From: Facilibium subflavum
GTDB taxonomy: Bacteria > Pseudomonadota > Gammaproteobacteria > Francisellales > Francisellaceae
Assembly: GCF_003574485.1 (NCBI RefSeq)
Contig: NZ_QLIT01000137.1
Location: 1 to 32,347, forward strand
Direction of reading: 5' to 3'
Length of the DNA: 32,347 bases
Shown: positions 30,228 through 31,436 of the stretch, in pieces
How positions within the stretch are numbered: the first letter of the stretch is position 1
How the letters are laid out: each line of letters opens with the position of its first letter
Program-made: the position numbers and the translations under genes
The notes under the pieces: model-generated
Databases searched by the model: none
The model's input: only the letters and a program-made list of their open reading frames with translations
Told to the model about the DNA's origin: nothing

Positions 30228-31436
30228 ATGCAGGATTATATGATTGAGGAAACTGCACAAGCTAATGCAGATAAGCTTTTAGGCTATTTATATAATGCAG
30301 CTAGTAAAAATTATATTGGTGAGTGTGTTTCGCAAATTGCGCATGCATGTCAATGCGCGCATTTTGCCAAAGAACTTAACCATGGCATTGATGTTGAAAT
30401 TGCATCTTTGCTGCATGATATTGGGCATTATTGTAATGATGTTTCTGAGCCACAAATGGCAGGTTTAGGCGTGATTAATCATGAGTGGATTGGCGCAAGA
30501 AAAGCTTTAGAAATGGGACTTAACCTGGAGGTTGCCATATTAATTGGCGAACATGTTAATGCCAAACGTTATTTGGCTGCAACAAAAACAGGATATTATG
30601 AAAGATTATCGCCTGCCTCTAAAGAAACATTAGGTTTTCAAGGTGGTAAGATGTCTAAAGCTGAGCAAGTAGCTTATCAAAGTCATGCATTATTTAAAAA
30701 GATACTACAGGTGAGAGTAAATGATGAAAAAGGTAAGGTTGAAAATTTAGAAACTGTCACACCAGCGCATTATCGTGAAGCGATTGCGAACCAGATACGT
30801 ACCAATTTAAAAAAACAAGCGATTGATTTTCCCAAACAGATATATTTTGTAAGGCATGCCCAGGCAAATTCTCAACAGCCAAATGCTGGGCTTACTGAAA
30901 AAGGTGCAAAAGATGCTATTGATTTAATCGATTTATTAGATGATATTATTGGATCTCCAGTAGATTTAATTCTTTCAAGTCCTTTTATGCGCGCATTAAA
31001 AACGATAGATCCATATGCAAAAGCGCAAAATAAATTAGTGATACCAGATTATAGATTGCGAGAGTTTCACCCTTGTGATTTTCGTAATAGTAATTATGCC
31101 AATCATGAAAGAAAGAGTTTTTATAATTCAAGTTATAAGCTTGATAAAGATAGCCACACGCTATTTAAAGTGCAGCAGTTTGTCATGTCGTTAATTAATG
31201 ATGTAAAAGCCAGTGTATTGAATAATTATATTGTCGTTACACATGGAAGATGGCTATCTGCTTTGTATAAAATAATTGATAAAAATATCAGTTTTAATGT
31301 TATTAAAAATCTTTCAAGGCCTGCAATCTTAAAGTTAACTATTTATCAGGAAAGACTGGCTTTGGAGGTATTATATAGTGGTGGGCCCTGCAGGACTCGA
31401 ACCTGCGACCAACGGATTATGAGTCCGCTGCTCTAA
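30228..31436 (+). CDS. phnZ: PhnZ-like HD-domain oxygenase fused to a histidine phosphatase
   Basis: A 402-residue, two-domain protein. Residues about 1-185 are an HD domain of the PhnZ type, a mixed-valence di-iron oxygenase that cleaves the C-P bond of hydroxylated aminoethylphosphonate, giving glycine and phosphate. Candidate metal ligands are H39, H63, D64, H85, H109 and D166. Y29/E32 and H67, K113, S131, T134 correspond, at a constant offset of five, to PhnZ Y24/E27 and its phosphonate-binding residues as I recall them. Residues about 203-385 are a histidine phosphatase domain: RHAQ (R209, H210), R255 in LSSPFMRA, E279 and H339 in VVTHGRW, so it looks active. The ATG at 30228 follows GGGA, one base after the dioxygenase stop; an ATG at 30240 is also possible. 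The last 18 or so residues and the stop are read from an antisense tRNA gene. Confidence 0.85.
   Translation: MQDYMIEETAQANADKLLGYLYNAASKNYIGECVSQIAHACQCAHFAKELNHGIDVEIASLLHDIGHYCNDVSEPQMAGLGVINHEWIGARKALEMGLNLEVAILIGEHVNAKRYLAATKTGYYERLSPASKETLGFQGGKMSKAEQVAYQSHALFKKILQVRVNDEKGKVENLETVTPAHYREAIANQIRTNLKKQAIDFPKQIYFVRHAQANSQQPNAGLTEKGAKDAIDLIDLLDDIIGSPVDLILSSPFMRALKTIDPYAKAQNKLVIPDYRLREFHPCDFRNSNYANHERKSFYNSSYKLDKDSHTLFKVQQFVMSLINDVKASVLNNYIVVTHGRWLSALYKIIDKNISFNVIKNLSRPAILKLTIYQERLALEVLYSGGPCRTRTCDQRIMSPLL

What the first reader, a model, noticed from the sequence alone, without database searches (positions are those of the whole stretch)
30228..31436. A PhnZ-type C-P bond-cleaving oxygenase fused to an intact histidine phosphatase
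The HD half keeps the PhnZ spacing exactly: relative to Tyr29, conserved residues lie at +3 (E), +10 (H), +34/+35 (HD), +38 (H), +56 (H), +80 (H), +84 (K), +102 (S), +105 (T) and +137 (D), matching PhnZ Y24, E27, H34, H58/D59, H62, H80, H104, K108, S126, T129 and D161 as I recall them. Characterised PhnZ is a single-domain protein of about 190 residues. Here a histidine phosphatase with RHAQ, SSPFMRA and THG motifs follows directly. The fusion suggests a phosphatase step or a phosphate-handling role coupled to phosphonate oxidation, which I have not seen described.
Basis: partly seen in the sequence, partly recalled or inferred. Interest (0 to 1): 0.8.

Follow-up and report, generated by a model that had tools for sequence, protein, structure and literature searches.

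The report
Phosphonate-cleaving oxygenase fused to phosphatase
A bacterial enzyme that very probably breaks the tough carbon-phosphorus bond of natural phosphonates carries, in the same protein, a complete-looking second enzyme domain that normally removes phosphate groups; I found this pairing in no other genome searched, and close relatives have a shrunken, apparently inactive domain or only a short tail there, so the phosphatase looks like an optional extra rather than a required step.

Summary
Window 30228-31436 (+) is one 402-residue reading frame: an HD domain (residues 1-195) that aligns without gaps to crystallised PhnZ, with all eleven named residues in place, then a histidine phosphatase with its catalytic residues (R209, H210, R255, E279, H339). 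It is the last gene of an MFS transporter - PhnY*-like hydroxylase - PhnZ operon. In the tree the HD half groups with 2-aminoethylphosphonate (AEP)-type PhnZ, away from TmpB; its modelled fold matches substrate-bound PhnZ (TM 0.94). C-P cleavage is therefore very likely (inferred, not assayed).

The coupling idea is weak. None of 80 PhnZ loci, 20 further HD loci or 26 close relatives carries an intact fused phosphatase, and none of the 80 has one nearby. Three relatives carry 100-140-residue C-terminal domains without catalytic residues; 27 Legionella-type proteins keep only ~35 residues. I favour one ancient fusion, kept intact here and decayed or cut elsewhere, though homology of the decayed domains is suggestive, not proven. 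The last ~18 codons run into a tRNA-Met gene, where synteny also breaks.

The architecture appears undescribed in the papers searched: a new variant of a known kind.

The parts
28077..29405 (+). MFS transporter, first gene of the operon; likely phosphonate importer (inferred)
   Evidence: Pfam Sugar_tr/MFS_1; best NCBIfam subfamilies are aromatic acid/H+ symport (173 bits) and phosphate:H+ symporter (141 bits), all below cut-off; same gene immediately precedes phnY*-phnZ in L007, L008, L016, L017, L169, L170
29432..30226 (+). PhnY*-like 2-oxoglutarate/Fe(II) phosphonate hydroxylase (PhyH family); H117, D119, H198 metal triad conserved
   Evidence: Pfam PhyH 97.6 bits; NCBIfam methylphosphonate hydroxylase 222 bits, below cut-off 500; 48-63% identity to the partners in seven related operons, triad invariant
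30228..30812 (+). PhnZ-type HD mixed-valent di-iron oxygenase domain (residues 1-195)
   Evidence: phmmer to 4N71 E=8.5e-41, ungapped; AF2 pLDDT about 90-98 over most of it; Foldseek to 4n71 TM 0.94, rmsd 1.9; tree in AEP-type PhnZ clade
30822..31379 (+). Histidine phosphatase (His_Phos_1) domain, residues 199-384; R209, H210, R255, E279, H339 in place
   Evidence: Pfam 49.6 bits vs cut-off 21.7; aligned catalytic residues; nearest standalone relatives 26-29% identical
31380..31436 (+). Non-native C-terminal tail and stop codon, read antisense through the tRNA-Met gene
   Evidence: ARAGORN tRNA-Met 31379-31455 (-); standalone phosphatases end at about residue 384
31379..31455 (-). tRNA-Met(CAT); synteny with relative G004 (ppk2 - tRNA-Met) stops exactly at its 3' end

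Best explanation
A phosphonate-scavenging operon: the MFS protein imports AEP (and probably R-1-hydroxy-AEP), PhnY* hydroxylates AEP at C1, and the HD half of the fused protein uses a mixed-valent di-iron site to split the C-P bond to glycine and phosphate. The C-terminal histidine phosphatase is a real, probably active phosphomonoesterase that was joined to PhnZ once, in the ancestor of this Legionellaceae/Francisella-type PhnZ clade. It adds a second, independent way to release phosphate from organophosphorus, through a phospho-histidine intermediate on H210, rather than a required step of the C-P route. Because the C-P route works without it, the domain has lost its catalytic residues or been cut off in the relatives. 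Shown: domain content, residue conservation, operon, clade, modelled HD fold. Inferred: substrates, activity of both halves, independence of the two halves, single origin of the C-terminal domains.
For: Ungapped match to PhnZ with all iron and substrate residues; PhnZ fold at TM 0.94; AEP-PhnZ clade with SH-aLRT 98 for 19 rows and 96 for the 10-row Legionella/Aquicella/own-family clade, TmpB and methylphosphonate-type rows outside; the authentic PhnZ sequence gives the same NCBIfam score order as the window protein; PhnY*-like partner directly upstream with conserved metal triad; histidine phosphatase over Pfam cut-off with full catalytic set. For decay: three relatives with 100-140-residue C-domains lacking the catalytic residues; these carriers fall outside the short-tailed Legionella clade, two changes of state suffice (one gain plus one loss) and their being one clade is not rejected (p-AU 0.20); a profile of the three decayed domains scores the window phosphatase above 99.3% of its shuffles (35 of 4940 as high), and all four share an S[VM][LI]xxY[ILV][VLF][VI] strand motif absent from the standalone phosphatases collected. 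Against a coupled step: no histidine phosphatase near any of 80 PhnZ loci.
Against: Pairwise and HMM tests of each decayed domain against the histidine phosphatase alone are not significant, and the strand motif was chosen after seeing it. The branches of the window, L169, L007 and L008 are long, so their basal position could be partly artefact. The window HD half evolves faster than its sisters, which could mean a changed substrate. The phosphatase half could not be modelled (mean pLDDT 38.6). Neither activity has been measured. The lost native stop codon might harm the phosphatase half.
Confidence: 0.6

Rival explanations
1. Coupled catalysis, the first reader's idea: the phosphatase acts on a phosphonate-pathway intermediate, for example freeing AEP from an ester or clearing a phosphorylated by-product, and is fused to channel it.
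For: Both halves release phosphate and are encoded in one frame in a phosphonate operon with complete catalytic sets. Acanthamoeba phosphonoglycan holds AEP and hydroxy-AEP in a polysaccharide (Korn et al. 1973, cited in PMC8154272), so an esterase step is conceivable.
Against: PhnY*/PhnZ need no phosphatase to give glycine and phosphate (PMC10574752). No linkage of the two families in 80 other PhnZ loci. Relatives lack catalytic residues or the domain. Histidine phosphatases of this branch mostly cleave phosphomonoesters, not phosphonate esters (general knowledge).
Confidence: 0.15
2. Recent private fusion: the window lineage alone gained the phosphatase, and the C-terminal domains of L007, L008 and L169 are unrelated additions or drifted sequence.
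For: Direct sequence comparisons between the window phosphatase and those domains are not significant. Nearest standalone phosphatases are only 26-29% identical and come mainly from Bacillota plasmids.
Against: All four carriers sit at the same place of the same operon and outside the short-tailed clade; profile test at about 0.7% and shared strand motif.
Confidence: 0.3
3. The HD half has changed substrate and is an oxygenase or hydrolase of something other than AEP-type hydroxyphosphonates.
For: Long branch of the window HD (0.89, against about 0.35 for its neighbours); 36-50% identity to most relatives; scores below every NCBIfam equivalog cut-off.
Against: All metal, YxxE and phosphonate-site residues kept; PhnY*-like partner kept; authentic PhnZ (178-residue stretch) is below the same cut-offs.
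Confidence: 0.12
4. Assembly or annotation artefact joining two separate genes.
For: The genome is a draft in 378 contigs and the gene lies near a contig end; the true stop is missing and the frame ends inside a tRNA.
Against: No stop or frameshift at the junction; three relatives also carry an extra domain at this position; only the 3' tail is affected by the tRNA boundary.
Confidence: 0.04

Closest known systems
PhnZ, (R)-2-amino-1-hydroxyethylphosphonate dioxygenase (HF130_AEPn_1; PDB 4N71, 4MLN)
   Same: Ungapped alignment, all iron-binding and substrate residues, same fold, partner PhnY*-like hydroxylase next to it
   Different: PhnZ is a single domain; here a histidine phosphatase follows, and the HD half sits on a longer branch
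TmpB (trimethylaminoethylphosphonate pathway; PDB 6NPA)
   Same: Same HD oxygenase family, YxxE loop and fold (TM 0.88)
   Different: Different clade; TmpA partners are TauD/GBBH-type (general knowledge), whereas this partner is PhyH-type; 110 bits vs cut-off 300
PhoF, fungal PhnY-PhnZ fusion (Fonsecaea; described in PMC10574752)
   Same: A PhnZ domain in a fused bifunctional protein
   Different: PhoF joins the two oxygenases; here PhnZ is joined to a histidine phosphatase and PhnY* is a separate gene
Standalone histidine phosphatases of Priestia and Paenibacillus plasmids (WP_013060036.1, WP_338709032.1)
   Same: Same subfamily alignment, all catalytic residues, conserved N, D and P positions
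   Different: Only 26-29% identical, standalone, not in phosphonate operons; window lacks GES

Membership tests
PhnZ-type HD mixed-valent di-iron oxygenase | Iron ligands H...HD...H...H...D at PhnZ spacing | tested here: met
   H39, H63/D64, H85, H109, D166 align ungapped to H34, H58/D59, H80, H104, D161
PhnZ-type HD mixed-valent di-iron oxygenase | YxxE substrate-gating loop (Y24, E27 in PhnZ; PMC8177086) | tested here: met
   Y29 and E32; Y near-invariant and E invariant in the 22-row alignment
PhnZ-type HD mixed-valent di-iron oxygenase | PhnZ fold | tested here: met
   AF2 HD half, Foldseek 4n71 TM 0.94
PhnZ-type HD mixed-valent di-iron oxygenase | Curated score cut-off of NCBIfam TIGR03276 | tested here: inconclusive
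   143 bits vs 214.6, but crystallised PhnZ (178-residue stretch) also scores below, 190
PhnZ-type HD mixed-valent di-iron oxygenase | C-P bond cleavage with a mixed-valent di-iron centre | not testable with these tools
   needs protein and assay
AEP pathway (PhnY*-PhnZ) | Partner 2-oxoglutarate hydroxylase of PhyH type in the same operon | tested here: met
   29432-30226, PhyH 97.6 bits, metal triad invariant
AEP pathway (PhnY*-PhnZ) | Clade of AEP-specific PhnZ rather than TmpB or methylphosphonate type | tested here: met
   19-row clade, SH-aLRT 98, with 4N71
AEP pathway (PhnY*-PhnZ) | Substrate of PhnY* is AEP | not testable with these tools
   no AEP-type PhnY* model turned up among the NCBIfam matches; methylphosphonate model 222 of 500 bits
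TmpB | Curated TmpB cut-off and TauD-type partner | tested here: not met
   110 vs 300 bits; partner is PhyH
Histidine phosphatase superfamily, branch 1 | Pfam His_Phos_1 cut-off | tested here: met
   49.6 vs 21.7 bits
Histidine phosphatase superfamily, branch 1 | Catalytic R-H, SSPxxR, acidic E and second H | tested here: met
   R209, H210, R255, E279, H339
Histidine phosphatase superfamily, branch 1 | alpha/beta fold | tested here: inconclusive
   AF2 model mean pLDDT 38.6; only the order of strands and helices looks right
SixA, CobC, dPGM or PspA equivalogs | Curated cut-offs | tested here: not met
   26.6, 28.1, 29.5 and 15.7 bits, all far below cut-offs

The most novel reading that the evidence does not exclude
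Amoeba-associated gammaproteobacteria (Legionellaceae, Aquicella, the window's family) share an operon that feeds on the phosphonates of their host's plasma membrane (AEP and R-1-hydroxy-AEP of Acanthamoeba phosphonoglycan). The window version is a truly bifunctional phosphorus-release enzyme, C-P oxygenase plus phosphomonoesterase, whose phosphatase half has since decayed into a pseudo-enzyme domain in its relatives.
Probability: 0.35. Interest if true: 0.72.

Novelty: new variant of a known kind. Interest (0 to 1): 0.55.

Why it matters
As far as the papers searched show, it would be the first reported joining of a C-P bond oxygenase with a phosphatase, and a case where the fused partner appears to decay in relatives while the oxygenase half is kept, which makes the role of the second domain testable by simple domain deletion. 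It also points to a little-noticed nutrient link: phnY*-phnZ clusters are rare in complete genomes (7 of 19,425, PMC8154272), yet this clade occurs in 23 of 143 genomes of the Legionella order, and amoebae carry exactly its two presumed substrates in their membranes.

Tried and rejected
Viral contigs with the HD alignment: no relative; with the phosphatase alignment: one partial hit, L168. Phage records: one hit at 33% identity. Direct sequence or HMM proof that the C-domains of L007, L008 and L169 are histidine phosphatases: not significant; only the pooled profile test gave support. AF2 of the phosphatase half: too poor for a fold search. Pho-box search: six weak sites, none before the operon, chance-compatible. 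Promoter and terminator scan at chance level. Tested for a PEP mutase (phosphonate synthesis) in the own genome: only a match far below the cut-off. Long open frames seen in PhnZ hits of high-GC genomes were checked: the HD domain ends the frame each time, so they are not C-terminal fusions. Empty-site test against G004: only ppk2-tRNA-Met is shared, so neither an empty site nor an integration event could be shown.

Full report
What is there. The frame at 30228-31436 (+) encodes 402 residues without a stop. It starts one base after the stop of the preceding gene, behind a GGGA motif about seven bases upstream, and is the third gene of an operon: MFS transporter (28077-29405), PhyH-type hydroxylase (29432-30226), HD-phosphatase fusion.

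HD half. phmmer against solved structures aligns residues 16-193 with PhnZ 4N71 residues 11-188 without a gap, E=8.5e-41; TmpB follows at 1.5e-21. The YxxE loop, in which the tyrosine caps the second iron and the glutamate meets the substrate amine (PMC8177086), is present as Y29 and E32. AlphaFold2 models this half with high confidence and Foldseek puts it on substrate-bound PhnZ at TM 0.94, rmsd 1.9.

Which PhnZ. NCBIfam scores are 143 (TIGR03276), 110 (TmpB) and 93 (hydroxymethylphosphonate type), all below cut-off. As a control, the PhnZ sequence from the crystal (178 residues) gives 190, 142 and 121, also below all cut-offs and in the same order, while TmpB and a Poribacteria methylphosphonate-type protein peak on their own models. 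In a 113-row tree the window lies in a 19-row clade with 4N71 (SH-aLRT 98) and in a 10-row clade (96) of Legionella, Aquicella and two genomes of the window's own family; TmpB and the methylphosphonate type are elsewhere. The partner hydroxylase keeps H117, D119 and H198 across eight operons and scores 222 of 500 on the methylphosphonate hydroxylase model, where the Poribacteria partner scores 360. AEP is the most likely substrate, but this is inferred.

Phosphatase half. Pfam His_Phos_1, 49.6 bits against 21.7. R209, H210, R255, E279 and H339 align with standalone enzymes of Priestia and Paenibacillus plasmids and of genome G148, at 26-29% identity. No known equivalog (SixA, CobC, dPGM, PspA) fits. 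The GES motif of the neighbours is replaced by DSH.

Is the fusion found elsewhere? Intact: no. I checked the best 80 PhnZ loci from 84,980 species genomes (a capped scan, so not exhaustive), 20 HD loci from a 398-genome phylum sample, 398 genomes with the phosphatase domain as query, 33 genomes of the own order, 369 of the class, and plasmids and phages. None carries a C-terminal histidine phosphatase, and none of the 80 loci (845 kb) has one nearby. No paper in the library holds both PhnZ and histidine phosphatase.

Relatives. Two genomes of the same family (L007, L008) and one other Legionellaceae genome (L169) carry the same MFS-PhnY*-PhnZ operon with a C-terminal domain of 100-140 residues in which the RH, SSPxxR and H motifs are gone. 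L007 and L008 domains are homologous to each other (z about 6). L169 reads collinearly with the window (KTIYTV/KQIYFV, IYDYNLSQL/IPDYRLREF, LINESVLSRYLLV/LINDVKASVLNNYIVV). One-to-one tests are not significant. A profile of the three scores the window phosphatase above all but 35 of 4940 shuffles, and a shared strand motif occurs in 9 of 20,000 shuffles and in none of the standalone enzymes; the motif was picked after the fact. The Legionella order holds the clade in 23 of 143 genomes; apart from L169 and one truncated frame (L189), these have only a ~35-residue conserved tail. In the concatenated PhnY*-HD tree the four carriers branch outside the short-tailed clade; two changes suffice (one gain plus one loss), and holding them as one clade is not rejected (p-AU 0.20). 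Long branches weaken this.

The 3' end. The stop codon is inside tRNA-Met (31379-31455, -). Related phosphatases end where the tRNA begins. The relative G004 shares ppk2 and tRNA-Met with the window, and similarity ends exactly at 31379. The native stop was probably lost in a rearrangement at the tRNA 3' end; the tail is probably meaningless.

How it works. MFS import (inferred), PhnY* hydroxylation and HD cleavage to glycine and phosphate (established chemistry of the families; PMC10574752, PMC8177086), plus an independent phosphomonoesterase through H210 (inferred). The own genome has no PEP mutase match above the cut-off, so it probably scavenges rather than makes phosphonates. Because the oxygenase clade lives without the catalytic phosphatase elsewhere, a coupled obligate step is unlikely.

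Ecology. R-1-hydroxy-AEP was first isolated from Acanthamoeba, whose plasma-membrane phosphonoglycan holds AEP and hydroxy-AEP (PMC8154272 citing Korn 1973). Legionella and Aquicella are known amoeba-associated bacteria (general knowledge). Only 7 of 19,425 complete genomes had phnY*Z (PMC8154272). Feeding on host-membrane phosphonates is a reasonable, untested hypothesis; no paper in the library holds both PhnZ and Legionella. The name of the window's organism was not established; its class is that of Legionella, because a Legionella parisiensis locus and an f43 'same class' genome give identical sequences.

Noticed in passing
window 31379-31455 and L164 6661-7611: Synteny with relative G004 (ppk2 - tRNA-Met) stops exactly at the 3' end of tRNA-Met; the fusion gene borrows its stop codon from inside the tRNA gene.
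   Followed up: partly
L016, L017, L027-L030, L169-L189: An MFS-phnY*-phnZ operon clade occurs in 23 of 143 genomes of the Legionella order; Acanthamoeba membranes contain the two matching phosphonates, so these bacteria may feed on host-membrane phosphonates.
   Followed up: partly
L032 958-2304; L033 966-2312: PhnZ and PhnY* fused in one protein (HD first, PhyH second) in SAR86 and a gammaproteobacterial MAG; a bacterial counterpart of fungal PhoF, which joins the same two oxygenases.
   Followed up: no
L048 4789-6555; L085 4834-6555: TmpA-TmpB-like fusion (GBBH-like/TauD plus HD oxygenase) in Thioglobus-type genomes.
   Followed up: no
L025 6148-9698 (Aquicella lusitana plasmid 3): Broken remnant of the same operon: truncated MFS joined to PhnZ with PhnY* deleted, between two inverted near-identical transposase genes.
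   Followed up: partly
L017, L027-L030 and other Legionella PhnZ C-termini: Conserved ~35-residue tail (LPDYVDxxWVEQFKxxLE) after the HD domain, beyond the end of classical PhnZ; may be a remnant of the C-terminal domain or a separate element.
   Followed up: no
NCBIfam TIGR03276: The crystallised founding PhnZ (178-residue stretch) scores below the curated cut-off of the model named after this activity (190 vs 214.6), so automatic annotation may miss AEP-type PhnZ.
   Followed up: no
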